DNA of 64,000 bases from Serpula lacrymans var. lacrymans S7.9 (taxonomy: Eukaryota; Basidiomycota; Agaricomycetes; Boletales; Serpulaceae), in the NCBI RefSeq assembly GCF_000218685.1, contig NW_006763295.1, positions 2,430,882 through 2,494,881 on the forward strand, written 5' to 3'. This document shows, piece after piece, positions 4,225 through 26,790 of this stretch. Below the pieces are notes generated by a model, which had not been told where the DNA came from, did not search any database, and saw nothing but the letters and a program-made list of their open reading frames with translations. How positions within the stretch are numbered: position 1 is the stretch's first letter; each line of letters begins with the position of its first letter. Made by a program: the position numbers and the translations under genes.

Positions 4225-5334
4225 ATGGTAGCGAAGATATTCAGCAAACGCTCTCGTTCAGGCAACGGAAGCCTGAGTCCAGCTGTTCAGCTCAAGAAGC
4301 AAGAAGACGCGGTAATGGAGCTCCTAAGGGAGTTATACAAATGTAACGGCGTTGTACCCAACGTTCAGGTGCAAGGATTCGTCACAAGATGCGACTCGTG
4401 GGTTGTTCTTTTCCTGACCGATAAGCGCCGTGTTTTGATCCTCCCCTTGATAGATGTGAAGAACTACGGAAAAGCCTTGCAGAGCAGTTATTGATGTCAG
4501 ATAAGACACAAATCGACCAAATCCAGGATGAGATCAATCAACTCAACGCAGACTGCGCTAAGCTTATGGAAGATATCAAGGTCGGTTGGTTAACTAATTG
4601 TGTTGCATATATAGCTCAATGTACAATAGAACGCGCGGAAAACAGCTCTCAGAAATGATATAGTCCTGAGCCTCGCGCAACCTCAAGGTAGTAGGACTTG
4701 GCTCAATCCTAACAAATGCTATCTGACTTGAATAGCCCCCAATCCAGCTCATTCCAGCCCTGTCGCAAATAACGCTCACCAGGCGAATGGGTCCAACAGT
4801 GGTCTCAGCGCAACCATGTATCACAGCGCTCCGAGTGTTCTCCAAGAAGGGAGCGTGTTTGGAACCGGTAACACCACGATGGCTACTATGGCCACTAGGG
4901 GCTCGTCTACGACCAACTCAACCTATGGTAAGGCTGCTCGCTCTGCAATCCAACACCAATAACTGATAATCACATATACTAGCTTCTTCACAGCCAGTCA
5001 GCTCCCACCAAGGAAACTCGTCCATGGGGCACCCCTCACAACCGCAACGGTCACCACCTCCATCGATGAACCGCCAAAACTCGGAGCACTCGTCCGACGA
5101 CACGTCTTCGTCTTCCCTTGGGTTCAACCCTGAAGGAATGAGCTTCTTTAACTTCAGCGGTAACGGTAAACCGAACGTCGATTCCCCGACGATTAATATT
5201 GGAGGATCAAGAAACTCGGGTGCAGGTGAGGACCTTGTTGTTCAGTCGACCTAGCGGTGATAACTAACCATCTTTGTGTAGTCAAGCAATACACTGTACC
5301 ACAGTCCTATTTCAACGGACAAGTTTCGTTATGA
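4225..5334 (+). CDS. Low-complexity protein with coiled coil and Gly/Asn C-terminal motif
   Basis: Five exons (4225-4397, 4454-4584, 4736-4927, 4983-5225, 5282-5334) give 263 residues. The basic N-terminus is followed by a charged helical or coiled-coil stretch (ELRKSLAEQLL, IDQIQDEINQLNADCAKL). A long Ser/Thr/Asn/His-rich segment comes next. The end reads FNFSGNGKPNVDSPTINIGG followed by SRNSGAVKQY. That ending resembles the C-termini of the small proteins at 12.8, 17.1 and 21.5 kb (GGSxNRGGG then Q-Y), and the last intron splits the same Gly-rich position. I therefore treat it as a divergent relative or functional analogue. The donor of intron 2 (GTTGGT) is the weakest call. No kinase gene lies upstream. 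Function unknown; possibly a self-assembling adaptor. Confidence 0.6.
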
Positions 5335-8663: not shown

Positions 8664-9965
8664 ATGGCACAATCCAACATACAACTTCGCGATGTTAATG
8701 ATTACATCGAAATGGGTCCTGGAGAATGGGCATCAAGCCTGTATCTAGAAAGTGACAAGCTCCCTACTCCTCTCATATCAGCCCAACGACGTGTGGAAGT
8801 CCTCAAGGTGATGCTCCTCCACTACAAGGGTCTATATCCTAAAACAGAGTTGAGGTTGAGTGTCGAAGACAACAATCGTATTCAAGAGCGTTTCAGCAGG
8901 GCTGAGCCAATAATGAATAGGTGTTTGCAAACTTTGTATACCCCACTACCGCGTGCTTTATCTCATATCCTGTTCCAGGCTTGAGAGCATCGAGGCCGAA
9001 ATCCCAAAATGGGGCTTCACACTCAATCCTCTAAGGTTAACGAACAGATACAACGAATCTGAATACTACATCAGCCAGAGCAAATTCCTGCCTATGGAGT
9101 TCACGGTAAGGCAGTGGAATCGGCAATAAATAATGCATCAACTAAGAGATCTTGTGGTGATACAGCTATTGGGGTATAAATTGGACCTGCGTCCGAATAC
9201 ATTGGTTACGAATGGTAAGTCTGATATTTGCTCAATTTTTGCTAAGCGGATGGGCAATGATAATTCCCAATTTGAGAATTGATTTCCTTAGAAAATGATG
9301 ATTGCATCGAGTTTACAACGTTGAGTACTTTGAGCAGCGGTATTCTCCAAACGGTCGTGGATAATGGTACATTTCAGCCTATTTGCTGCTCTCATGAGAG
9401 CTGAATCGTTCCTTCTTTACGAACAGAATGCGAAGCACATTGCGTGGTTCCATACATATGCAACAGTGACGAACTTAAATCGCCAAGGGCTACCACCAGT
9501 CCCCCGGAAGCACAGTCCGTGGTTCCATACATATGCAACAGTGACGAACTTGAATCGCCAAGGGCTACCACCAGTCCCCCGGAAGCACAGTCCGTGGTTC
9601 CATACATATGCAACAGTGACGAACTTGAATCGCCAAGGGCTACCACCAGTCTCTCGGAAGTACAGTCCGTGGTTCCATACATGTGCGGCAGTGACGAACT
9701 TGAATCGCCAAGGGCTACCACCAGTCTCCCGTTTTCTACTGACGAGAGCGCAGACGAAATCAAAGCTCCTATCTTGAACTTGAACGTAACCGATTCGGAT
9801 GCCTCGATTCAATGTTTGCGGGAGATATTAGCCTTTGCTGAGAAGGGGAAGCTTTTGGGTTTGCAGGTGAACTTCAACGCCAACTGCAATATTTACCAAA
9901 GCTCCGACTCCAGTGTAGTTCCCTCTGATGTGAGGGTGGGAGACCACAATACCGGAGGGAGCTAG
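8664..9965 (+). CDS. Helical protein with 25-residue tandem repeats and Asn/Gly C-terminus
   Basis: Five exons (8664-8920, 8979-9105, 9166-9214, 9292-9366, 9427-9965) give 348 residues with consistent phases. The N-terminal part is helical (RRVEVLKVMLLHYKGLYPKT, ELRLSVEDNNRIQERF) and includes a W...LNPLRLTNRYNESEYYISQ segment. That segment aligns loosely with the SWNPRKIYKQRRRHLKLAAE region of the small proteins in the downstream modules. Residues in exon 5 form almost four copies of a 25-residue repeat starting VVPYICNSDELESP. The C-terminus has an acidic stretch, a short amphipathic helix (LREILAFAEKGKLLGL) and a final VRVGDHNTGGS, close to the RHIM core pattern V/I-x-V/I-G-x-x-N. I infer a divergent member of the same family, without a head-to-head kinase. 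Function unknown. Confidence 0.68.
9444..9735 (+). repeat. 75-bp in-frame tandem repeat, about 3.9 copies
   Basis: Units begin at 9444, 9519, 9594 and 9669 and are nearly identical at the DNA level. Each encodes 25 residues (VVPYICNSDELESPRATTSP plus five). The high DNA identity indicates recent expansion. Both the reading frame and length are preserved. Confidence 0.95.
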
Positions 9966-10605
9966 TCTGAATCCTGTGATGTGCTGTAAGTTGACTTTAC
10001 AGTCTACTATACAAAACAGCCGTCAACTGCACCTAGCTCTACGCAAGAATGGTAGCGAGGTCGAATATTTCATAGCACGGGTAGGATGGCAATCACCACC
10101 CCATCCTCAACATATAATTTACGTGTAAATGTGGACGTGTAGCGATAGTTGCTGCGATGTTGTAATTGGATACAGGCTTACGAATTTGGGCATGTACATA
10201 TGCTCAGCCTAAAGTCGTAAGTAGTTGATAAGTATCACAATTATTATTCCACGCCAGTAGCATTGGTCTAAGGTTTGTCTCCTAATGCCAGACCTCATGA
10301 GGAATTAAGTTCAACCGTTGGTATTGTCCGCTAGTTTGGGTAATTTCTCAACACATAGGGGGAGATCCGCCTTGTCCTATACGCGTTGACAAGGATCATG
10401 CATAAGGAAAGACTTTTCTGATAGCCGTACGGCGGGAGGAAAGACGTAAATTTATAAATCGACGAAGTTACTTTGACACATGTGGACAGGCTCTCACCCG
10501 CTTGTCAGGATCGTGACAGGCCAAGTGTCAGGGGGGAAGGGGGACTTATGACTTTGATCGTCGAGTGACGATAAGGACTGCCGGAGTTCACATGCAGAAG
10601 TAAAG
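9966..10605. other. Convergent 3' intergenic region
   Basis: Region between the 8.7 kb gene end and the start of the first duplicated unit. No coding signal is seen. Confidence 0.5.
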
Positions 10606-10746
10606 CAACAACACATTCATATGCAGCTGCGACTCCTGGTCACATGAAGTACGCTTAACGTACACTACACAGAGGCCAGGAATCCAGTTCCTCGGATAGA
10701 TCCATAAGTAGATAGAGCAGGTATAATGGTAAAGAACGTAAGGGTT

Positions 10747-12131
10747 TCAAGGCGTTGGCATCGCCGGCACTCTCCTGATAATATAACCGATGCGACGGGT
10801 CCAATGAGTAACACCACGAACAAGGCCTGTGATATTGCCATCCTCCTTGTCAACGACGCGTGAGCGTAATTTCCAGCCGCTGAGCTGCTTGAGAATCTGG
10901 TCAAAACGCGCAACGACTTCATCCATAGTAGGCCGCTTTGCTGGGTCATCCTGTACCATGTCATTCACCAAAGGTTCCATGAATTCGAATCCATTCTTTG
11001 TCTGGATACGAAAATCATGTACATTCAGCCCCTTCCTTTGGTAGTACGAATGTTTACTCACCAGCAAAAATGTATTCCTAATCATATTACCAAGATAGTA
11101 GACATCTGTTGGGAACGGGTTACGAGGCTCATTCGACTTCTGAAATTCGGGCACAGTCTTGTCTCCTCCCTTTATAGGACTCTCCAGAGGCGCGACGTTA
11201 TTAGCATCGTAACGCCGAGATATACCAAAATCGATGAAAAAGTATTTTAGCGGGCGTTGAGTGCGAGTGAAACATCTAGCTTCCCCTTGGTAGTCGCGTC
11301 TCATCACAATGTCCTGGGGATGATACGGATCGATGAAAAGACGCGTAGCATCCATCATAATGTTCAGAGCCATACAGTCGCTAAATAATCATTCAATGGT
11401 AGGGGTTGTGAGGAGCGAGTAACACACACCGATGTGCGACACGTTGTCTATGGATGAATTGAAGACCCTGGTAAATTATACGTTTCAGAGGTATCATCGA
11501 GAGGTCGACAAGCTCTTTACCACAAAAAGTTGGTGAAAGCATTCGACTACCTCACCACAAGTTTCGAAGCGTGGTTTGGTGAACGGTCGCAGTAAGGGCA
11601 TGACTATGATAGCCCGGTCTTCATCGTCAGGTAAATGGAGCACGTCGTAGATTGGTACACAATGGTTGGCAGGATCAGAGGCAAGTGCTTCAGAAGAGAA
11701 TAGTTGGCCGATTTCAATCTCATAGGGATGCCGAGACTTTTTCATTAGCTTCAAAGTCACAAACAATCCGTCAGATATGCGAGTTGCATCCAATATGTGC
11801 TGAATCTGAGAGCGGTCACTGGAGAATGTAGAGGATGTAGATCGCGACGTCGTACCAGAGGCCCACGGCTATCTTCACAGTCCATCCAATCCTTTTTGGT
11901 GCCTTGCCATGAAGGAACCCACCCTGGAGAGTATCGAGGGCGAAGCAAATACCCAGCATCTTTCAACCATTGATAGTGTCTGCACCACAGTAATTCACCT
12001 GGCTCGATGGCACCGGGCATGGTTGAGATAGGACCACCCAACGTTTCAAGCGCACGTTCCTCAAACTTTGCTTGATCCTGGTCTCTTTTTGCATCTTCTT
12101 CAGCTTGACGCTTGCGACGACGGGAAAGCAT
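10747..12131 (-). CDS. Protein kinase 1 of the triplicated module
   Basis: Five exons (12131-11856, 11805-11521, 11467-11430, 11380-11062, 11001-10747) encode 390 residues. The N-terminus is a basic, charged helix (MLSRRRKRQAEEDAKR) followed by a Trp-rich region (WCRHYQWLKDAGYLL). The kinase fold follows. There is no clear glycine loop. A VTLK lysine and a downstream Glu (EIEIGQLF) match the beta-3 Lys and alpha-C Glu. The catalytic loop AHRDCMALNIMMD is split by intron 3 inside the Arg codon. FIDFG supplies DFG, VPEF stands in the APE position, and TDVYYLGNMI is helix F. The C-tail is basic. All catalytic residues are present after splicing, so an active enzyme is likely. Such kinases are expanded in Agaricomycetes; the substrate is unknown. 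It is head to head with the gene at 12762. Confidence 0.88.
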
Positions 12132-12761
12132 TAATCACCAATGAACGTGGTGAAAGTATGGCGGCCCAGTTCGCTGATGAAAATGGTTTGGATGAAGTTA
12201 GGTTTGCTCCCAAATATGTGTACATATGGACCCATCGAAGCAAGCACTTGCTAAGTGCTTACGTCACTGTAGACGCGGAGACGCGGACCTCTGTGTTCAA
12301 TCCCCGACATGCAGCGGCAAACTAGCTCCCAGACGTTCAACCTGAAACCACCATAGTAATTCGCTAATAAAATGATTCCGTATATCTACATACTGGTACA
12401 GTCATTCTCATCGGTAGTAAAATGAGCGTAAGTTTTCATGTTTTTTTCTTTCTAAAAAGAAAGCATTTTTCTAAGTACATTGCATATTCAGTCTAATGTG
12501 TTGCTGCCGCCACTGACCGAGTAAAAGCACATACTCCTTCCATTATATAGGCTCCCAGCGGATCGACTGGCGGCGGTATATCGATACAATATTAATATTA
12601 TTATTCGATTAGTTCGGCCTCTGAATTCACAAACCGGTATTCACTCCTTCTACTACATCCCACCGCCCTTGTCGTTCCCTCGGTACTGCCTTTCATATTC
12701 CCTGAAGCATTGAGTATCTCACATCCTACTACTACGCTGCCTCTTTGTCGAATTCACCTCC
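12132..12761. promoter_or_regulatory. Shared divergent promoter of module 1
   Basis: 630 bases between two divergent start codons. The kinase-proximal ~180 bases are clearly similar to the same position in module 2 (16480-16660). An inverted repeat CTTTC-N6-GAAAG lies near 12449. The close spacing suggests co-regulation of the pair, which is inference. Confidence 0.6.
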
Positions 12762-13882
12762 ATGGAGAATATAATGACCGCCACCTCAGACGCGGACGTT
12801 CTAACATCATTAGTCTCGTTGCCCAAACTCGTTGCGAAGTGCACTCCGTTGGAGAAAAGCAGAATATACCAAGATATCACCTTTGAGTTACTTACACGAT
12901 GTCATATGCACTCTACCAATGCGCAGCTTGGTATAGAAGATGAGATCGAAAGGATCAGGATTCACTTCAAGGGGTCTGTTATTTTTCTGGCTTCGTCCCT
13001 TTGGGCTATTCTTTGGACTGACTATTTGTTAAGACTACATCAAACCAGGCGTGGATATGAACAAGCAAAGAAGTCATGGAACCCCCGAAAGATATACAAA
13101 CAGCGCCGTCGTCATCTCAAACTCGCCGCAGAAAGTTTTGATCTCCTGGAAGCAACCAAAGTGAGAGGCTGACTGGGTTTAGAATTAGTCCGTATGATGG
13201 CTCATAGTTAAGGCAGAACACTTCGGATAGCATTTTACAAAGGACGTGTTTTAGTGCAGGAGGTGAGTGGTAGATATAATGTCCTTTGATAACCGACTAT
13301 GGAATTGTGTCAAGTCAACCTAACGGTAACCTTTTGTTCGTTAGACCAGCAATCATTGATCAGTACCACGGCCAGTTTTCTCACTGCGGTTGATTATATT
13401 ACTAAGGGTGGTGAGTCTATAAGCTCCCCGGTTCTCAGTGAGAAGAGCTGAACCGCCTTCCATACGTGTGCAGAGATGGACGACGAAGAAGACGAGATAA
13501 ATGCTGATGAGGATACTCTGGCATCACCCGGTGACGGAGATCAAAGCGAAGAGCAAGCTGTAGCACAAGTTCAAGATTTTACTCGGGCTATTCAAGAGAT
13601 GCCAATTGCACAAGTTCAAGGTTTTACTCAGGCTATTCAAGAGATGCCAAATTCGCCAACAACGAACTTTACCATAAACATAACCCAGAATATTTTCTGC
13701 CAAAGTGTTGTGCATCAAGGTTCCGGGTCTAGTACGAATTCTTCAGTCATCGCGGGTGGTTCAAACAATAGGGGAGGAGGTATGCTGAGGCTATTTCTTT
13801 GTAGTTGCAACAGAAAGCTGACAAACAGCACTGGAATGTAGGCAGTCAACATACGACCTCCTCTTCTCGACGGTCTACATGA
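12762..13882 (+). CDS. Small helical protein A with amyloid-like C-terminal motif
   Basis: Six exons (12762-12973, 13034-13160, 13217-13262, 13345-13410, 13474-13779, 13842-13882) give 265 residues. Residues 1-70 are helical (PLEKSRIYQDITFELLTRC). A basic helix (WNPRKIYKQRRRHLKLAAE) and another helical segment (STTASFLTAVDYI) follow. An acidic linker leads to a 15-residue sequence present twice (AQVQ-FT-AIQEMP). The end is NIFCQSVVHQGSGSS then NSSVIAGGSNNRGGG and a Ser/Arg tail. The VIAGGSNN core resembles the RHIM pattern. No signal peptide. Exon 2 can be read continuously with exon 1, but the intron position matches copy C, so the spliced form is preferred. Paired head to head with kinase 1. 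Function unknown; an adaptor or effector is inferred. Confidence 0.8.
13563..13652 (+). repeat. 45-bp direct repeat, two copies, in small protein A
   Basis: Units at 13563-13607 and 13608-13652 differ at only a few bases and encode AQVQ(D/G)FT(R/Q)AIQEMP plus one residue. Copies B and C have a single unit, so the duplication arose after the modules separated. Confidence 0.9.
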
Positions 13883-14950
13883 AATGCACATCTGGACCCG
13901 TGTTTGTTGTAGCCGTCAGGTGCTCTGACGTGCCACTGTGTGGCGGGCTTTCGACCTTTTTAGCATGCAGCGTGGCGCCCAAGCTCGTCGCTGTGGACAG
14001 TTCTTCCGTACGCGGTGCGCTAAGGCTTAGGCCATCTGCAAGTGGAGTACTGAGTCGGCGAATTTCGTCTGATGGACCTGCTGCTTAGCGTCAGATGTTC
14101 TTGGATTATTCTTTAGCCTGTCTCCACATCTACAAAAACTATGTAAACGGTGAGGGGAACTACAAGATCTGGAACGCATTTCAGGAAATCGGGAGCCGGA
14201 AAAAGAAATATGTGAAGAGGTCGTGAACCACCACTTCGTATGGCGTTGTCAGTGGGCTGGAACGAGGCGATAAGAACAACGGCGAAATTCACATGCGCAC
14301 AGACTTTCACCCACTTGCCAAAATTGCGACAAAACAGGGGAGTGACTGGATAAATCCGACCCTTGACAGTTTGAATGTCACATCCCTGATTTAGAGAGGC
14401 TTGGCTATTTACGGGAGTACTGTAAATGCGCAAACACCGTGGCGCCTAGCTTTGATACGAATGGTGATACTTGCAGGTGCAATTTCCGAGTTAGCCAGCG
14501 GTCACATGGAATACGTTTGAAGTTCGCTACCACGAATCCGGGACCTCGGAGGGATCTATAGGTGTAGCCCAGCACCATATCATTCATAAACGTTAACCTT
14601 CGGTCCATTTTTTGGGGCACGATATACAAAAAACTATGACCATTAGTTCTATTCATTAATGCAGGCAATTAATCAACTAGAACTCGTTCAACGACATGGA
14701 AAGAGTGTCTCTGACCTTTGAAAACGGCATTTTAGACAACGTGACTATGCCATAACGCTACCTCAGTTTGAATCCTTTCATGGTAATTGTGCTATCAGTT
14801 GGCCAGCCTGAGGGATAAAGACCAAAGATGAACAAGTCAGGCCAGTACACATGTATCCATTCGTTAAAACCATTGAAATCGGTCCTTATCAGTTTTGAGT
14901 CTTTTGACCAACCTTAATGGAGATATGTTCAGAGCAGACTCGAATGTAAT
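13883..14950. other. Duplicated non-coding tail of unit 1
   Basis: This region is closely similar to 18196-19344. ORFs exist on both strands (for example 13879-14088 plus and 14113-14433 minus), but frames are not kept between copies: an 8-base difference shifts the plus frame and a stop breaks the minus frame. A GTGGGT/GTGAGT to TTCCAG pair on minus is kept in both copies (around 14270-14320 and 18590-18640), so a decayed or non-coding spliced transcript is possible. I assign no gene. Confidence 0.5.
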
Positions 14951-15091
14951 CAACAACACATTCATATGCAGCTGCGACTCCTGGTCACATGAAGTACGCT
15001 TAACGTACACTACACAGAGGCCAGGAATCCAGTTCCTCGGATAGATCCATAGATAGATGTAGCAGGTATAATGGTAAAGAACGTAAGGGTT

Positions 15092-16479
15092 TCAAGGCGT
15101 TGGCATCGCCGGCACTCTCCTGATAATATAACCGATGCGACGGGTCCAATGAGTGGCACCGCGATAAAGGCCTGTGATATTGCCATCCTCCTTGTCAACG
15201 ACGCGTGAGCGTAATTTCCAGCTGCTGAGCTGCTTGAGAATCTGGTCAAAACGCGCAACGACTTCATCCATAGTAGGCCGCTTTGCCGGGTCATTCTGTA
15301 TCATGTCGTTCACCAGAGGTTCCATGAATTCAAATCCATTTTTTGTCTAGATGTGGAAACCATGACCATTCGATTGATTTTCCGGTAGTGCAGATGTTTA
15401 CTCACCAGTAAAAATGTATTCCTAATCATATTGCCAAGATAGTAAACGTCTGTTGGGAACGGGTTACGAGGCTCATTCGAATTTTGAAACTCGGGAACAG
15501 TCTTGTCTCCCCCCCATATGGGACCTTCCAGAGGCGCAACGTTATTAACATCGTAACGCCGAGATATACCAAAGTCAATGAAAAAATATTTTGGCGGACG
15601 TTGAGTGCGAGTGAAAAATCTAGCTTCCCCTTTGAAGTCGCGTCTCATAACTATGTCCTGAGGGTGATACGGATCAATGAACAGACTCGTAGCATCCATC
15701 ATAATGTTCAGAGCCATACAGTCACTAGATAATCATCATTCAGTGGTAGAAATTATAAGCGACAAACTTCATATACCGATGTGCTACGTGTTGCTTATGG
15801 ATGAATTGCAGGCCCTGATGGTAAATGAATTGCTTTAGATGTACAATCGAAAGGTCGACAAGCTCTTTACCACAAAAAGTTGGTGAAAGCATTCGACTAC
15901 TTCGCCGCAAGTATCGAAATGTGGTTTGGTGAATGGTCGCAATAAGGGCATGACTATAATAGCCTGGTCTTCATCGTCTGGTACATGGAGCACATCGTAT
16001 ATCGGTACGCAGTGATTCGCAGGGTCAGATGTAAGTGTTTCTGAAGAGAATAGTTGGCCGATTTCAATCTCGAAGGGATGTTGAGACTTTTTTATGAACT
16101 TTAAAGTCACGAACTGTCCGTCAGATATGCGCGTTGCGTCCAATATATGCTGAATCTGGAGTAGCCATATTAGAAAATATAAATGTCATGAAACGCAACG
16201 TACCAGAGGAACAATGCTATCTTCACACTCCAACCAATCCTTTCTGGTACCTTGCCACGAAGGGACCCACTCTGGAGAATATCGAGGACGCAGCAAATAA
16301 CCGGCATCTTTCAACCACTGATAGTACTTGCACCACAGCAATTCACCTCGCCCGATGGCACCAGGCATGGTTGAGATAGGTCCGCCTAGCGTTTTACGCA
16401 CACGTTCCTTAAATCTTGCTTGATCCTGGTTTCTTTTTGCATCTTCTTCAGCTTGACGCTTGCGACGACGAGAAAGCAT
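15092..16479 (-). CDS. Protein kinase 2 of the triplicated module
   Basis: Five exons (16479-16204, 16155-15871, 15814-15777, 15724-15406, 15346-15092) encode 390 residues, the same exon lengths as kinase 1. The catalytic motifs after splicing are HRDCMALN, FIDFG and TDVYYLGNMI, so it appears functional. Differences from kinase 1 are mostly conservative substitutions spread over the gene. The HRD Arg codon is again split by an intron. It is head to head with small protein B across 633 bases. An active protein kinase with unknown substrate is inferred. Confidence 0.88.
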
Positions 16480-17112
16480 TGATTGCCAGTGAACGTGGTG
16501 ACAATACGGTGGTCTAGCTTTCCGATGAAAATGATTTCGATGAAGTTAAGTTTAGCCCAAAATATGTGTACATATGGATCCATTGAGACAAGCACCAGGT
16601 AAATATCGCAGGCGCGGAGCTCTGTGTCTGATCGAAATTTGATCCCCGACACACAGCGGCAAACCAGCTCCCCGATGAAGTTCAACCGCAAGTATTATTT
16701 CTGAGGCCCATCCATGTCTACATTCATTTGATTTGGTAACAATAATTACCTTAAGCATGCAGTTTTCCACGAATATCTAATTGCACAAGGTATCACTTAC
16801 TGATGCGGGTGCTGAGAAATTCCGTAAAATACTGGACTGACTCCTTCCAATATAGGCTTCCGAACCGACTGGTCCCTGGAGACCCTAGAAATGCGATGGG
16901 GCCGGTGTCGACACATAGACTCTATTATTGGGTCGGCCTCTGAATGCATAATCCAGGATATATATCCAGACTTCAACCCACCCACTGGCTGCCCTTGTCA
17001 TTTCTCAGCCCTTTACATGTATCTTCAAATAAGTCAACCGCAAAGTCTCTGACGTTCATTGGGCCAAGTGTCTAACATATTACCTTGCTGTCTCATTGTC
17101 TAACTCACCTCC
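16480..17112. promoter_or_regulatory. Shared divergent promoter of module 2
   Basis: 633 bases between divergent starts, almost the same spacing as module 1. The kinase-proximal part is conserved with module 1, including the shared ATATGTGTACATATGGA block near 16561. This block is an obvious candidate regulatory element. Confidence 0.6.
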
Positions 17113-18195
17113 ATGGAGAACTTAATCACCGCTAGCGGTAGACCAGACATCATAACATCCCTAATCTCGTTGCCCAGACTTCTTGCGAAGTGCAGTCCTT
17201 TGGAGAAAAGCAAAATATACCTAGACATCACCTTGGAGCTGCTTACTCATTGCCAAAACACTTCTAGTAATGAGCATCTGGGTGTACAGGACGAGATCGA
17301 AAGGATCGAGGATCATTTCGAGCGGCTAGTTATTTTCCGCTTTCGTCCCTCCATTCTGGTCTAACTATTTTTCTTTTTAATCCTCAGGCTACTCAACACT
17401 ACGCATAGCTATGAACAAGCAAAGAAGTCGTGGAACCCCCAAAAAATACTTAAGCGGCGTCGTCAGCATATCAAACTCGCCACACAAAGTTTTGATCTGC
17501 TAGAAGTAACCAAAGTGAGTTATTGAAACTGTCCCTACAATTGATTACTCATTCCGTGGCAGACAACTTCCGATCGCATTTTACGAAAGGCATGCATTAG
17601 TGCAATAGGTGAGTGGTATGTGTAGTAATCTTCATTTCAATCCGATTGCGAGTTAGTGGGGATGTCTTGTTGAGCCGAACTAACGGCGACCTTCTGTTCA
17701 TTAGACCAACGATCATTGATCAGTACCACAGCAAGTTTCCTCACTGCTATTGACAATGCCACTCAGAACGGTATGTCAATGATATTCCTACTATCTTACT
17801 GAGAAGGGCTCGACTATCTGCATATTTACTTACATAGATATGGATGACAAAGAAGACGAGATAAATGCTGATGGGGATGCTTTGGCATCATCAGCTGACG
17901 AAGATCAAAGCGAAGAGCAAGTTGTAGCACAAGTTCAAGGTTTTACTCGGGCTATTCAAGAGATGCCAATTTCGCAAGCAACGAACTTTACCTTCAACCA
18001 GAATATTTTCTGCCAAAGTGTTGTGCATCAAGGTTCCGGGTCTAGTACGAATTCATCAGTCATCGCGGGTGGTTCAAATAATAGGGGAGGAGGTATGCTG
18101 AGGCTATTTCTTCGTAGTTGCAACAGAAAGCTGACAAACAGCACCGGAATGTAGGCAGTCAATATACGACCTCCTCTTCTCGACGATCTACGTGA
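17113..18195 (+). CDS. Small helical protein B with amyloid-like C-terminal motif
   Basis: Six exons (17113-17324, 17388-17514, 17563-17608, 17705-17770, 17838-18092, 18155-18195) give 248 residues. Exons 1-4 and 6 have the same lengths as in copy A. The helical N-terminus (PLEKSKIYLDITLELL), basic helix, acidic linker, single AQVQGFTRAIQEMP unit, and C-terminus QSVVHQGSGSS then NSSVIAGGSNNRGGG are all kept. The exon 1 donor is GC (GCTAGT) where copy A has GT. A GT site three bases downstream would shift the frame. Thus the gene is intact only if the GC-AG intron is used. Paired with kinase 2. Confidence 0.75.
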
Positions 18196-19344
18196 AATAC
18201 ACATATACACATCTGGGCCCGTGATTGTTGTAACCGTCAGGTGCTCTGACGTGGCACTGTATAGCAGGCTTGCGACCCTATTAGCTTGCAGCGTAGCGCC
18301 CAAGCTCGTCGCTGTGGACAGTTCTTCCGTTCGCGGTGCGCTAAGGGTTAGGCCATCTGCTAGTCGAGTACTGAGTCGGCGAATATCGTCTGATGGACCT
18401 GCTGCTTAGCGTCAGATTTTCTTGGATTATTCTGTAGCCTATTTTCACGTCTACAAAGACTATGTAACTGGTGAAGGAACTACAAGGTCTGGAACCCATT
18501 TCAGGAAATCGGGAGCTGGAAAAAGAACAAAGATGTGAAGAGGTCGTGAGCCACCACTTGGTATGGAGTTGTCAGTGTGCTGGAACGAGGCGATAAGAAC
18601 AACGGCGGAATTCACATGCGCACAGACTTTCACTCACTTGTCAAAATTGCGACAAAGCAGGGGAGTGACTGGATAAATCCGACCCTTGACAGTTTGAATG
18701 TCACATCCCTGATTCAGAGAGGCTTGGCTATTTACGGGAGTACTGTAAATGCGCAAGTGTGAAGAACACCGTGGCGCCTAGCTTTGATACTGTGGTGTGA
18801 CACTTGCAGGTACAATTTCCGAGTTAGCCAGCGGTCACATGGAATACGTTTGAAGTTCGCTACCACGAATCCGGCACCTCGGTGGGATCTATATGTATAG
18901 CCTAGCACCATATCATATCATTCATAAACCTCCGGTCCATTTTTTGGACACAATATACAAGAAAGTGCGATCATTAGTTCTATTTATTAATGCAGGCAAT
19001 TAATCAACGCGAACTCGTTCAACGACATTGAAAGAGTGTCTCTTGAAAACGGCAAAATTTTAGACAACGTAACCGTGTCATAACACTGCCTCAGTTTGAA
19101 TTGGCATACATTATTCAGATATTCATATGGCGGCTATCCCTCTGTGATCGATTTCTCAACCAAAATACAACCTTTCATGGTAATTAAGCTATCAGTCGGC
19201 CAGCCTGAGGGATAAAGACCAGAGAGGAACAAGTCAGGCCAACATACGTGTATCCATTCGTTAAAACCACTGAAATCGGTCCTTATCAGTTTTGAGTCTT
19301 TTGACCGACCTGAGTGGAGTTATGTTCAGAGCAGACACGAATGC
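18196..19344. other. Duplicated non-coding tail of unit 2
   Basis: Counterpart of 13883-14950, with substitutions and small indels that are not multiples of three. No gene is supported. Confidence 0.5.
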
Positions 19345-19475
19345 AACCAATAACACATTCATGTGTAGCCGCGACTCCTGGTCACATAAAGTACACTACA
19401 GAGGCCAGGAATCCAGTTCCTCGGATAGATCCATAAGTAGATGTAGCAGGTATAATGGTAAAGAACGTAAGGGTT

Positions 19476-20859
19476 TCAAGGCGTTGGTATCGCCGACACT
19501 CTCCTAACTATATAGCTGATGCGACGGGTCCAATGAGTGACACCACGATAAAGGCCTGTGATATTGCCATCCTCCTGGTCAATGACGCGTGACCGTAGTT
19601 TCCAGCTACTGATATTCTGAAGAATATGGTCAAAGCGCCCAACGACTTCATCCATGGTGGGCCGCTTTGCTGGGTCATCTTGTACCATGTCTTTCACCAG
19701 CGTTTCCATGAATTCAAACCCATTTTTTGTCTTGGTTTATACAAGCATATGCAATTAACCTCTTTCAGCATAGGGGTATCACTCACCAGCAAGAATTCAT
19801 TCCTTATCATGTTTCCTAGATAATATACGTCTGTTTGGAAGGGATTGCGAGGCTCATGCGACTTTTGAAATTCAGGTACAGTCTTATCGCCTCCCCATAT
19901 GGGTTCTTCCAGAGGGGCAACATTGTCCGCTTCATAACGTCGAGATATTCCAAAGTCGATGAAAATGTATCTCGGAGGACGCTGAGTGCGAGTCACGTAT
20001 CTAGCCCGGCCTTTGAAATCACGTCTCATATTACGCTTTTGCGGGTGAAAAGGATCGATGAATTGCGTTGCGTCCATCATGATATTGAGATCCATGCAGT
20101 CACTATTAGTCTTTAAGAGAACATCCAAGGACAAGAACCCGACAAAAAAACACACCGATGAGCGACATGTTGCTGATGAATAAATCGTAAACCCTGCGGA
20201 GCGAGATAATCAGTAGCCCATTTGAAAAACTTGAAGAGTTCTCACCACAAACAGTTGGCGAAAAAAATCCAGTACTTCACCGCAAGTGTCAAACCGGGGA
20301 TCGTTAAATGGTCGCAACAGCGGCATGACCAGAATAGCCTGATCATCGTTATCTGGTACATCGAGCACGTCATGAATTGGGACGCAATGATTGGCAGGAT
20401 CAGAGGCCAATGGTTCTGTCGAAAATAGTCGGCCAATTTCAATCTCATAAGGATGTCGTGACTTCCTCATCAACTTCAGTGTCACAGCAAGTCCATCGAC
20501 CATGCGAGTTGCATCCATCACATGCGTTAACTACGAGATGGTGATTGAAAAACGCAGCGAGTAGAGTAAATCACACAACGTACCGTAGGAACTTGGCTAT
20601 CTTCGCATTCTGCCCAATACTTGTTGTTACCTTGCCATGAAGGAACCCACCCAGGCGCGTATCGAGAGCGTAGTAAGTAGCCAATATCCTTTAGCCATTG
20701 ATAGTGCTGGCACCACCATAGTTCAGTTTTAACAACAGTCTCGGGCGTGGTCTGTAAAGGAGAACCAAACACTTGAAGTGCACGTTTCTCGATGATCGCC
20801 TGTGTCTGTGCTAAACTTGCTTCTCGCTCAGCTTGGCGCTTGCGTCGACGAGACAGCAT
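19476..20859 (-). CDS. Protein kinase 3 of the triplicated module
   Basis: Five exons (20859-20584, 20530-20246, 20193-20156, 20102-19787, 19730-19476) encode 389 residues. Exon lengths equal those of kinases 1 and 2 except one codon missing in exon 4. VTLKLM (Lys), HRDCMDLN, FIDFG and TDVYYLGNMI are intact after splicing. It is the most diverged of the three. It is head to head with small protein C across 600 bases. An active kinase is likely; substrate unknown. Confidence 0.87.
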
Positions 20860-21459
20860 TGGTGAATATTATAACGGCCAGTGCAAGGTCGCAATGTCGA
20901 TTACACTGCTTTTGCCCCAGCTGAAGTCCCGCTTCGTCGGACTCTAAAGATAAGTCCCCGACATACCCCGCGGCAGTGACGCTAGCGCTTGCAACGTTGG
21001 TCAATTTACGGAAAACATATACCTATGCCTCAATGCATGCACACTGCGATATGTGATCTGTTGGTTACGCATGCCATTTATACATTACGTCTATCTGGGA
21101 GTGGGCTTGGATTGAAGCCTGTCTTTTCATCTGTTTGATTCAGGATGTGATGTCACGTTACTCTAACAGGCTCTTACTAGCCAACCAAATGAACTTCAAA
21201 GTGGAACTTTAAGGGAATTATTCAGTTGCGCAAAACCCACGATAAACTTAAAGGTATAGTATTGGTATAAGTAGCATATATTTGCGCATTTACCATGTGA
21301 CGCTAGTACCGTTTTATCTCATCCTATTCCAGCAGCCAACTAGTCACAACTTAAAAAGAGGACAATGACAATTCGATCACTAGCACATCGGATTTTCCCC
21401 TCTATACCCTGACGATCTTATCACATACGTATATACTTCCACAGAAGCTCCTGCGAAAC
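20860..21459. promoter_or_regulatory. Shared divergent promoter of module 3
   Basis: 600 bases between divergent starts. Sequence similarity to modules 1 and 2 is weak, but spacing and orientation are preserved. Confidence 0.5.
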
Positions 21460-22517
21460 ATGGAAAGACTTGATGATGCCAGCAGCTCTTCCAACTTTGA
21501 CCTTCTAGCATCCCTCAGTTCACTATCCAAAGACACTGAGAAGTGTTCATATCTTGAGAAGGGTCAACGGTACCGAGAGATCTCCCTAGAACTACTCTAT
21601 CAATGTCAGAGATATTCCAGCCAGTCTCAACTGAATGTTGGAGAGGACCTCCACAGAATCGAGATTCTTATTTCAAGGTATTCAACTATTTCTCTATTGG
21701 TACTCTGATTTTATTCTTCTGGTTTTTACTCAGACTAAATATCATGGCGCTCCAACTTGAACAACAAAGAAAGTCGTTTGTATGGCATCCGAGGAAATTA
21801 ATGAGGATGTATCGCACACGTCGTGAATTTGCCGCACAAAGCCTTGAGGTGCTGAAGTTCACGAAAGTAAGTGATTGAATTCGATAAGGACTTATCACTT
21901 ATAATCGCATAGAATACTTCAGATGATATTCTGAGGAGGAGAATATACAGCGTAGAAAGTGAGCTCGATGTCCCCTGCTACATCCATCTCCGAGACCGTT
22001 CACATTGGCCAGTCTGGCTGATGTCAAATCTTCATTTCGTTAGATCGTGAGGCAATTATCAATTCTACAGCAAGCTACTTCACGGCTGTAGACAGTATTA
22101 TTCAAGGCGGTGCGTTTTCAGCTTACCTTGAGTCTCACTACAAAGGACAAATTTATTCTCTCTGTTTTATTTTGCAGACGTAACGAGTGAAGATGAGGCT
22201 AACGACGATGGGCCTGATGCGGAATTTAATCAAAACGATCAGCAGGTCCTAACACAAGTGCAAGGTTTCCATCAGGCTCTTCAGTCGATACCCGTCGATC
22301 AGCTTAAAGCATCGACCGTAATTATAAATCAAGATGTCTTCATCCAAAGTGTTGTAAACCAAGGATCCAGTACAAATTCCTCAGTTATTGTGGGTGGATC
22401 ACACAACAGGGGTGGAGGTTCGTTATTTTGTAAAATATTCGATGAAAAGATGATAAGCAGGACCTCATCGCAGGCAATCAATATAATAATACATCCTCTT
22501 CCCAACCATTCATATGA
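21460..22517 (+). CDS. Small helical protein C with amyloid-like C-terminal motif
   Basis: Six exons (21460-21677, 21734-21866, 21913-21958, 22044-22109, 22178-22417, 22474-22517) give 248 residues. Exons 3 and 4 are exactly 46 and 66 bases as in copies A and B, with the same phases. The helical N-terminus (YLEKGQRYREISLELLYQC), basic helix (WHPRKLMRMYRTRREF), acidic linker and VQGFHQALQSIP segment are followed by INQDVFIQSVVNQGS and NSSVIVGGSHNRGGG. All introns have good GT-AG sites here, which supports the model for A and B. Paired with kinase 3. Function unknown. Confidence 0.82.
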
Positions 22518-24432
22518 ATCCTATACCAAGACGTGCCGTAGTAGCCAATGGTTTAAAACATCAACCTGCAACGGGCTGACTTGCAGCGTGACGATGTGAA
22601 GTCATGTTGTGGATATAATTCCGTCTAGCACGGGAATATTCAGATGTTCAGACTGGCCTGATGACCTCCGTGTTACAGTAGTTGACATGCCAGCGGAGGA
22701 TCTAAATTAGATGCACTTTCTGCTTAGCGTCGATTTTTCTTCTTGGTAGCTTTCTTGTTATACTTGGGGCGCATTGTATATGTTGCTTATTTCTTGATCC
22801 ATAATTAGATTTGATAGTACTTCAACGGAATATACTATAAATTCAGCTAAATTGTGATCTACCGAATCCACACTTGGGTACTGTGCGAGGAACATCTCAC
22901 CGTGCGATGAATCGGAGTGAAGAAACACAGTGCTGCTGACATGGAAGTGACAGCACGATGACAAGGCAGTTGTTGAGAACAGCCCGCGATATCAACAAGA
23001 CTTTACAAAAACACAGCACAACAACACTACAAATGCACCCACTCACCTACTTACCACAACCGTGCCAAACTCTGATTTCCAAGCAAAGAACCCTGAATAA
23101 GATTTGGAATTAGACTTGTACTCACCCGTAGAAAATGCGACAGACGTACACGAATGCAAGGTATGAATGAGACCCAGCCCCCTACAAATGTATATATCAC
23201 ACTCCTATACTCCATGAAGTCGGCACAACAAGTGACTTGAAGCGGAAAGGACACCGAAGTGACAGGTCGACACTCATCTAGAAAAGTCACCACATGCGAC
23301 GGTTTAATGATATTGAACTGTGAGGCTTCTCCATCTTCTCCATGGGAATATTGTTTTGATACGGCAGCCTTGTTTTGTGGTTTGTGGCTATGTGTATTTG
23401 AGATTATATGGCATGGGCTTTGTGAACACGAGATGTGAGTCATTGATGGATGGCCCTGTGACGAGACTAGTAAACTATAGTATGATATGACTTGTTCAAT
23501 TTGAGCTCACGTAGTATTCTACCAAGCGGCTGAAAAAGCTCGTCGTATTTTTATTATTCGATGATATTTTTCACCTACCTTGCAATTGTTGCTCGGATCC
23601 TTCGGGATTCTGATATCCCTTGGTGATCCCGAGTCAGCACTCCTACTTTAGGCGTTTCCAGCAGAGTTTTCGCATGTCCACACGCTGTCAGACATTCCAA
23701 GGCAGTGTCAGTCAGACAACAAGACACTTCGGAGGAGATTGAAGTCCAATTTTCGGCCTCAAAGGATAACGTGGATGAGGCACATTATGGTGTAAAATCA
23801 TGAGTTAGCCCCTACTAACACTCGAAAATATTGGCTCGGGAAGCATTCCCGTGAATCCGCAATGGCGGCAGACCCTCGCCACAACGATGGGCTCGTCTTC
23901 TTTAGGAGAGAATAGCGCTCGGCTTCCAATTAGTCAGAGGACGTAGAATTTTAGACACAATTAATTTTACGACTCGGGATGAGCCACATCAACTTTCTTA
24001 TTCATATTTTTTCGTGCTTCAGCTACGACGGTTTATTCAAGGATGGAGTCACAATGGTAAGTACCAGTAAGTATCTTACAAAAGGCTTACATCCTATGAA
24101 CGGCTCGCGGCTGTACTGACTGATGCCGAAACTTCGGCATTATGCTTTGTAAGCAGTAGTACGGCCGCTGGCATTGCAAGCGAATAAGCCGCGACAAGCG
24201 CAGTGTTCTGTCCTTCGATTTCGAGATAGGGCATAACCCTACGCCTGAAGACATAGGCCATCGATATCACTACACGAAAAGGACTAGAAATTAATCATCG
24301 ATACAGATATCAAGCAGTCAGATAATAAACTAACCCGGTAAATCATAATAGAGCTCAAGCGGTACATCATCTCTTCTGACTTGACGGCGAAATCTACATC
24401 AGAATATAACGCAAGAAGAAGCAAAAACCGAC
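22518..24432. other. Intergenic region, no supported gene
   Basis: About 1.9 kb. The first 230 bases are the diverged tail of unit 3. A 130-codon minus ORF (23051-23443) has no recognisable motif. No transposon ends identified. Confidence 0.45.

Positions 24433-26790
<2,358 letters not shown>

What the first reader, a model, noticed from the sequence alone, without database searches (positions are those of the whole stretch)
10606..22750. Tandemly triplicated head-to-head kinase / small helical protein modules
Three units each hold an intact kinase gene (minus) and a small protein gene (plus) with starts 600-633 bases apart. All six genes keep their exon plan (kinase exons 276/285/38/319 or 316/255; partner exons 3 and 4 always 46 and 66 bases). 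Preservation of both reading frames, orientation and spacing through duplication implies the two products work together. I know of no described two-gene system of this form. A kinase signalling to a self-assembling partner is the simplest hypothesis.
Basis: partly seen in the sequence, partly recalled or inferred. Interest (0 to 1): 0.88.

Follow-up and report, generated by a model that had tools for sequence, protein, structure and literature searches.

The report
Paired kinase and small-protein gene module
In the dry-rot fungus Serpula lacrymans a kinase gene and a small, fast-changing partner gene have been copied together around the genome as a two-gene unit and both kept under selection, which points to an undescribed two-part signalling system whose function is not yet known.

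Summary
Observation confirmed: three head-to-head pairs with the stated exon lengths, in Serpula lacrymans. The genome holds 13 partner (S) loci; 12 of 13 lie head-to-head with a kinase (K) of one family, starts 397-716 bp apart in the ten measurable pairs. In the thirteenth, K is 24 kb away, a gag-like ORF lies between, and S has an in-frame stop. K and S distances correlate over 10 pairs (Mantel r 0.975, 0 of 20,000 permutations). Both genes are under purifying selection.

Corrections: unit 3 is nearest to a copy on another contig, so this is no simple triplication; 46/66-nt exons are not universal; two more window genes (A, B) share S's intron phases and a similar tail.

K keeps its catalytic residues. 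S has a probably helical N-terminus, an acidic linker and a short Gly/Asn motif, its most conserved part. Most likely K acts on S, which assembles through the motif; that is inference. No HeLo or RHIM match was found by profile, and the S structure model is unusable. Pairing in other species could not be tested.

The parts
10747..12131 (-). K1, kinase, 5 exons 276/285/38/319/255, 390 aa
   Evidence: HRD, DFG and N present; PF00069 3.4e-7, 30.4 bits, just under the cut-off of 31.7
12762..13882 (+). S1, small partner, 6 exons 212/127/46/66/306/41, 265 aa
   Evidence: no Pfam match at E<=1
13714..13779 (+). S1 C-terminal motif QGSGSSTNSSVIAGGSNNRGGG (end of exon 5)
   Evidence: the motif is the most conserved part of the S family
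15092..16479 (-). K2, kinase, 390 aa
17113..18195 (+). S2, small partner, 248 aa; first intron needs a GC donor
18027..18092 (+). S2 C-terminal motif
19476..20859 (-). K3, kinase, 389 aa; closest relative on contig C15
21460..22517 (+). S3, small partner, 248 aa; identical to SERLA73DRAFT_180922 (partial, 246 aa)
22358..22417 (+). S3 C-terminal motif QGSSTNSSVIVGGSHNRGGG
10603..14947 (.). duplication unit 1 (about 4345 bp)
   Evidence: repeat families D1-D18
14948..19331 (.). duplication unit 2
19332..22517 (.). unit 3; the block it shares with C15 is window 19150-22510, ending just before the S3 stop
4225..5334 (+). gene A: S-like gene structure (phases 2,0,1,1,1; exon 2 = 127 nt), tail SPTINIGGSRNSGA; no kinase match beside it
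   Evidence: N-terminal similarity to S not above shuffles
8664..9965 (+). gene B: S-like gene structure (phases 2,0,1,1; exon 2 = 127 nt), ends VRVGDHNTGGS; tail-to-tail with K1
   Evidence: N-terminal similarity to S not above shuffles

Best explanation
The window carries three of 13 S copies, each with its K, of a two-gene module that Serpula lacrymans has multiplied and largely kept together. SHOWN: a kinase gene (K) and a small partner gene (S) are copied as a unit, stay head-to-head through long divergence, and are both under purifying selection. SHOWN: in the two tandem arrays the tail exons of S, which carry the conserved motif, are homogenised while the N-terminal exons diverge. INFERRED: the two products work in one pathway. 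INFERRED: K binds and phosphorylates S (its acidic, Ser/Thr-containing linker is a plausible target) or is held by S, and S passes the signal on by self-assembly through its C-terminal Gly/Asn motif, the N-terminal helical part giving each pair its specificity or output. Lineage-specific expansion and a fast-evolving partner fit a conflict role (nonself recognition, antiviral or antibacterial response) better than housekeeping; that too is inference. My estimates: functional two-gene module about 0.9; K acts on or is controlled by S about 0.6; assembly through the motif about 0.35.
For: Gene models and exon plan. Genome-wide S and K searches: 13 S loci and 28 K loci plus 3 K fragments; 12 of 13 S head-to-head with K. 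Start-to-start distances 397-716 in seven further pairs. Mantel r 0.975 over 10 adjacent pairs, 0 of 20,000 permutations as high. dN/dS in the 58 of 66 comparisons printed: K 0.09-0.34, S 0.16-0.51 where defined; bootstrap 95% intervals below 1 for all five close S pairs and all five close K pairs tested. K tree: 17 Serpula K form one branch (100/100), with S partners in all its major parts. The C15 copy shares the K-S block (3415 bp at 90%) and no match was found beyond S in the sequence held. Motif mean pairwise identity 0.62 against 0.32-0.46 elsewhere in S (12 sequences). Tail homogenisation. Active-site K, E, HRD, N, DFG and PE invariant in 35 aligned kinases chosen from the 120 listed; confident kinase fold. 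A distant partner family (T2), homologous to the S N-terminus, stands beside two further K.
Against: No direct evidence of interaction, phosphorylation, expression or assembly. Of 18 K loci that I count to this group (17 in the tree's clade plus the C16:251k fragment, which was not in the tree), four have no S seen beside them (C17:91k and C5:1109k with stops; C17:128k and C6:1747k without), one (C2) has lost adjacency and one (C16:405k) has only a weak S-like ORF, so a K can persist alone. In the tree's label test the S partner needs 6 changes, and 37 of 500 shuffles do as well: the label alone is not strongly clustered. S is present where K is broken (C14) or a fragment (C16:251k). S matched no Pfam family above cut-off. 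The S structure model is too poor to judge a fold. An N/Q/S/T/G-rich motif can be conserved for reasons other than assembly. K does not carry the motif (by eye; one search found only S genes).
Confidence: 0.45

Rival explanations
1. S is a regulatory subunit or inhibitor of its K (soluble complex, no self-assembly); the motif is a docking peptide.
For: One S per K, similar spacing, matched divergence; S small, acidic linker.
Against: The tail motif is the most conserved and, in arrays, the most homogenised part, odd if docking specificity to a diverging K were its role; K persists without S at some loci.
Confidence: 0.22
2. The genes only share a bidirectional promoter: they are co-expressed for one process but the proteins do not touch.
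For: Divergent starts 397-716 bp apart in ten modelled pairs.
Against: Between units 1 and 2 no repeat family was found over the intergenic stretch (about 12150-12795, a method that misses copies with gaps), while both coding frames are kept. Unit 3 and C15, a recent pair, do share it.
Confidence: 0.15
3. A selfish poison-antidote unit: one product harms, the other protects, and the pair spreads by drive.
For: Lineage-specific spread of a two-gene block, fast-evolving partner, stop in S after separation at C2.
Against: K is found apparently intact without a neighbouring S (C6:1747k, C2) and S without intact K (C14), so neither looks like an obligate antidote; no segregation data.
Confidence: 0.1
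4. Passive hitchhiking: two neighbours copied together by segmental duplication with no functional link.
For: Tandem arrays and recent copies exist; at C10 some non-coding similarity reaches about 1.2 kb behind K.
Against: Pairs with saturated synonymous sites are still head-to-head and both genes are under purifying selection; no third shared gene was recognised in the flanks held.
Confidence: 0.08

Closest known systems
nwd2/het-S and pnt1/hellp amyloid signalosome gene pairs of Podospora
   Same: Linked two-gene modules with a small protein that has an N-terminal domain and a short C-terminal motif (PMC7885112, six passages seen; PMC12881547, passages seen).
   Different: The neighbouring gene here is a kinase, not an NLR, and does not carry the partner's motif; S shows no HeLo match; no cell-death or prion data.
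RIPK1/RIPK3-MLKL necroptosis module
   Same: Idea of a kinase acting on an executioner with a short assembly motif involved (PMC12881547, passages).
   Different: There the motif (RHIM) is in the kinases and MLKL carries a pseudokinase; here the motif is in the partner. No sequence relation found.
Agaricomycete amyloid-like NLR motifs (NLR05/08/22/29/44) and BaMLKL proteins
   Same: Same fungal class, short motifs thought to assemble, helical effectors (PMC9815663, section 28 read whole, plus 12 passages).
   Different: Those motifs sit at NLR N-termini or BaMLKL C-termini; no kinase pairing is described in what I read. Their alignments are in figures and supplements I could not see, so identity of motifs is untested.
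FunK1 fungal kinases (PF17667)
   Same: Expanded kinase family in the same genome (93 matches).
   Different: K1 gave no PF17667 match at E<=1.
Agaricomycete 'kinase-like domain-containing protein' family
   Same: K belongs here: 1218 proteins at E<=1e-5; the best 120 were listed, and those with names are Agaricomycetes, many of them Boletales.
   Different: No partner gene for it appeared in the searches made.

Membership tests
Protein kinase superfamily (K) | VAIK Lys, helix-C Glu, HRD Asp, Asn, DFG Asp | tested here: met
   Invariant K111, E121, H199-R200-D201, N206, D250-F251-G252 in 35 aligned sequences; assignment to kinase positions is by eye
Protein kinase superfamily (K) | Kinase fold and Pfam PF00069 | tested here: met
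   AF2 mean pLDDT 89, Foldseek E 2e-9 to kinases (the model is of P0008, a Serpula relative of K1, not of K1 itself); Pfam score of K1 itself 30.4 against cut-off 31.7, i.e. just under; nearly all listed homologues carry PF00069
FunK1 (PF17667) | Match to the family profile | tested here: not met
   No match at E<=1 for K1
NLR-effector amyloid signalosome (HET-S, HELLP type) | NLR receptor as the partner gene | tested here: not met
   The adjacent gene is a kinase
NLR-effector amyloid signalosome (HET-S, HELLP type) | HeLo or HeLo-like N-terminal domain in the effector | tested here: inconclusive
   Nine S-family members scanned, only weak unrelated Pfam hits (best E 0.022); nothing related among PDB sequences; fold model unusable
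NLR-effector amyloid signalosome (HET-S, HELLP type) | Same short motif in receptor and effector | tested here: inconclusive
NLR-effector amyloid signalosome (HET-S, HELLP type) | Motif forms amyloid | not testable with these tools
   Needs bench work
RHIM (Pfam) / PP motif | Match to a Pfam motif profile | tested here: not met
   Seven C-terminal peptides, no Pfam family at E<=10 (HMMER's filters drop most weak matches); no PDB match for the motif profile. The look-alike [VI]-x-[VIL]-G-x-x-N is recalled, not a test
RIPK-MLKL module | Partner carries a (pseudo)kinase and four-helix bundle | tested here: not met
   S is 248-265 aa with no kinase match; the bundle part could not be judged
Divergently paired genes | Opposite strands, transcription starts under 1 kb apart (definition in the abstract listing of PMC2670823) | tested here: inconclusive
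   397-716 bp between start codons in ten modelled pairs; transcription starts are not known
S superfamily: T2 genes | Profile similarity and intron plan | tested here: met
   hhalign score 51.0, E 3e-8, maximum of 100 column shuffles 18.6; exon 2 = 127 nt in two T2 models, and an exon of 127 nt at the same place in the third, poor one
S superfamily: genes A and B | Intron phases 2,0,1,1(,1), exon 2 = 127 nt, C-terminal motif | tested here: met
   splice sites were chosen by hand to keep the frame
S superfamily: genes A and B | N-terminal sequence similarity | tested here: not met
   B 18.4 against a maximum of 19.3 in 100 shuffles; A 14.1 against 17.8 in 60

The most novel reading that the evidence does not exclude
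A basidiomycete immune or nonself-recognition switch in which a kinase, in place of an NLR, triggers a small helical executioner that assembles through a short RHIM-like Gly/Asn motif. S, T2, A and B would be one large, fast-evolving executioner superfamily recognisable by its intron phases and tail motif, different kinase clades using different partner types (S, T2, or the membrane-type T3).
Probability: 0.15. Interest if true: 0.9.

Novelty: new variant of a known kind. Interest (0 to 1): 0.62.

Why it matters
Fungi are known to pair NLR receptors with small assembly-driven effectors. A kinase in the receptor's place, in a module found at nine separate places of one genome (three of them on contig C6), would widen that picture in Basidiomycota, where evidence for such signalling is still thin (PMC9815663, section 28). 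It also suggests a way to recognise fast-evolving partners when sequence similarity is gone: intron phases plus a tail motif.

Tried and rejected
Simple triplication: rejected, unit 3 is closest to C15. Passive hitchhiking: disfavoured. K-S fusion proteins in other species as proof of partnership: of 13 long kinase homologues fetched, the 11 of 471-681 aa look by eye like double kinases and the other two like single ones, none like a fusion with S. S as a known family: Pfam, PDB sequences and Foldseek gave nothing usable; the Foldseek matches of the S model (best E 0.59) are ignored because the model has pLDDT 46. RHIM membership: not met. N-terminal homology of A and B to S: not shown. A known RNA family in window 10000-23000: no Rfam match. 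A guessed Pfam family (PF23948) found nothing. S relatives in other species: a profile search of the large protein database gave 3 proteins, all Serpula; it is limited by shared words, length and annotation (it found 3 of the 13 S genes of this species), so it does not show absence. Adjacency in other Agaricomycetes could not be tested: no other fungal genome was within reach of the tools.
Full report
WHAT IS THERE. The window is C6:2430882-2494881 of a 42.6 Mb genome. S3 is identical over 246 aa to a hypothetical protein of Serpula lacrymans S7.3, so this is the dry-rot fungus or a very close strain. The start codons of each pair lie 631, 634 and 601 bp apart.

HOW WIDE IT IS. Searching the whole own genome with S3 (31 matches at E<=1) and K1 (95 matches at E<=0.001) and re-reading the fetched loci gave 13 S loci and 28 K loci plus three short K fragments. 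Twelve of 13 S loci are head-to-head with a K. In the seven further pairs that could be measured the starts are 397-716 bp apart; in the other two, S exon 1 is not recognisable (C17:740k) or K is a fragment (C16:251k). The thirteenth S (C2) has an in-frame stop in exon 1; the K on the same contig, in the matching orientation, is 24 kb away, and an ORF with a weak retrotransposon gag match (E 9.5e-5, 23 bits, just under the Pfam cut-off of 24.1) lies between. Of that gap only the part next to S (about 7 kb) and 1.5 kb next to K were held.

K LOCI WITHOUT S. The K tree puts 17 Serpula K in one clade (100/100). Counting the C16:251k fragment as well (not in the tree), S is head-to-head at 12 of 18; a weak S-like ORF stands head-to-head at C16:405k (E 3e-4 within the set searched; 0.022 with the N-terminal profile); C2 is separated; four have none in the stretch read: C17:91k (a stop in K, an integrase ORF next to it), C17:128k (no stop in the model, but odd exons), C5:1109k (broken) and C6:1747k (close copy of C6:1802k). 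In a second Serpula clade of five K (100/99), two have a T2 gene beside them (C16:843k head-to-head with starts 664 bp apart; C16:761k on the same strand) and three have none seen. Near three distant K on C4 lies another small gene type, T3, in divergent orientation: adjacent at two (one of these matches has three stops inside, an intron or a lesion), about 4 kb away at the third, where the match is weak. Two K-like loci on C16 (735k, 738k) were not modelled. The upstream stretches held for the K without partner were about 1.5-2.6 kb, so 'none' means none seen there. The tree's label test is lukewarm: S needs 6 changes (37 of 500 shuffles as low), T2 two (500 of 500), T3 one (1 of 500), all groups together 10 (7 of 200); the labels were assigned by me.

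CO-INHERITANCE. Over ten adjacent pairs (one of them, C14, with a broken K) the K and S protein distances correlate with r 0.975 (0 of 20,000 permutations). Pairs with saturated synonymous sites are still adjacent. Nei-Gojobori dN/dS, computed by my own script, is 0.09-0.34 for K and 0.16-0.51 for S in the 58 of 66 comparisons printed (S undefined in six of them); values for distant pairs rest on saturated dS, and the set includes the damaged C2 and C17:740k S. For the five close S pairs bootstrap intervals are 0.26-0.56, 0.21-0.62, 0.31-0.93, 0.31-0.83 and 0.28-0.81, and for S1 against C10 0.10-0.29; all five K intervals are below 1. So S is not neutral, though its dN is about 1.7-3.3 times that of K in close pairs.

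MOSAIC EVOLUTION. Within arrays the tails are homogenised. S1-S2 differ at 83 of 339 sites in exons 1-2 but 22 of 294 in exons 5-6 (Fisher 4e-9); S_C6_1800 and S_C6_1804 differ at 74 of 339 and 0 of 285 (5e-22); K1-K2 differ at 38 of 285 in exon 2 and 13 of 252 in exon 5 (0.002), K_C6_1802-K_C6_1806 at 64 of 561 in exons 1-2 and 3 of 252 in exon 5 (5e-8). S3 against C15, on different contigs, does not show it (dS 0.18 and 0.16), and K_C6_1747 against K_C6_1802 has, if anything, more amino-acid change in its tail. Gene conversion or unequal exchange within arrays is the likely cause. The block shared by unit 3 and C15 runs from 326 bp behind K3 to the last codons of S3; no further match was found in the sequence held. 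At C10 non-coding similarity reaches about 1.2 kb behind K.

WHAT K IS. K belongs to a very large Agaricomycete kinase family (1218 proteins at E<=1e-5, best 120 listed). The catalytic residues are invariant in 35 aligned members, the model of one member (P0008) is confident (pLDDT 89) and matches solved kinases. No glycine-rich loop of the usual form is seen by eye. It is not FunK1 by profile.

WHAT S IS. S has a helical N-terminal half in a low-confidence model, the exon 3-4 segment, an acidic linker (39% D/E in S3), and a tail rich in N/Q/S/T/G (60%) with the motif QGSxSSTNSSVIVGGSxNRGGG, the most conserved segment (0.62 against 0.32-0.46). No known domain was found.

A WIDER SUPERFAMILY. 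T2 genes are homologous to the S N-terminus (hhalign score 51.0 against a maximum of 18.6 in 100 column shuffles) and end, for example, in LHNPTFNVGGSSNSGSG. Window genes A and B have intron phases 2,0,1,1,1 and 2,0,1,1, the same as S, exon 2 of 127 nt as in S1, S2 and the T2 models, and similar tails; in S, A and T2 an intron donor follows the motif directly. Their N-terminal sequences show no similarity to S above shuffles, so the link rests on gene structure and tail. A was remodelled after its first model failed, with splice sites chosen to keep the frame, which makes the phase agreement less independent.

MECHANISM. The pairing, selection and intact catalytic residues make a kinase-partner relation likely. 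The motif's conservation, and its likeness to the [VI]-x-[VIL]-G-x-x-N core of RHIMs (recalled, not a test; no RHIM match), suggest assembly. PP motifs and RHIMs partly cross-seed (PMC7885112, passage seen), and amyloid-like motifs are proposed in Agaricomycete NLRs (PMC9815663, section 28 read). The chain kinase to S to assembly to output is unshown at every step. Whether the output is cell death, nonself recognition or something else is unknown.

NOVELTY. None of the listings of ten literature searches shows a paper describing this pair; listings were capped, and the library lacks most subscription papers and holds no preprints. I file it as a new variant of linked fungal signalling pairs, not as a member of the NLR or RIPK-MLKL systems, whose defining features were tested and not met, or could not be tested.

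Noticed in passing
window 4225-5334 and 8664-9965 (+): Genes A and B share S's intron phases, a 127-nt exon 2 and a similar G/N tail, so five S-like genes lie within about 18 kb.
   Followed up: yes
window 9432-9731: Gene B's last exon holds 75-bp tandem repeats, over 90% alike.
   Followed up: no
C16:845853-846955 (L040, L071), C16:763870-764971 (L079), L082 850-1900 (-): T2, a distant relative of S ending in N(P/C)TFN(V/I/L)GG..NSGSG, beside two kinases of a second clade and once away from any kinase match.
   Followed up: yes
L081 9650-10000 with L084; C4:2756897-2757100: T3, another small gene type with a hydrophobic N-terminal helix (MSIDIFGYIAGGLGIIGLIYSVLHSQLP) and no S-type tail seen, head-to-head with two distant kinases of the same superfamily; relation to S was not tested by profile.
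   Followed up: partly
window 10606-10746 and the other kinase loci: The first 100 nt behind the kinase stop codon are better conserved than last-exon third positions in 8 of 10 comparisons; K3 and the C2 copy are identical over 98 aligned nt while third positions agree at 77%. Regulatory element or gene conversion.
   Followed up: partly
C14:319881-321197 (L067, L068): The broken kinase there has lost 24 of 86 CpG sites to TpG/CpA, against 6-10 of 106-112 in five intact copies, a sign of methylation- or RIP-like decay.
   Followed up: partly
window 12974-13033: The first intron of S1 is open in frame and, if kept, would add a hydrophobic stretch (SVIFLASSLWAILWTDYLL); the S2 counterpart has a stop and the S3 one shifts the frame.
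   Followed up: no
window 24218-24480: A stretch beyond unit 3 is 81% like DNA behind the C2 kinase (C2:1168720-1168990), perhaps a relic of a lost unit or a small repeat.
   Followed up: no
C6:1767497-1767844, 1800010-1800102, 1804384-1804476: Short kinase fragments lie behind three S genes on C6, perhaps remnants of further units.
   Followed up: no
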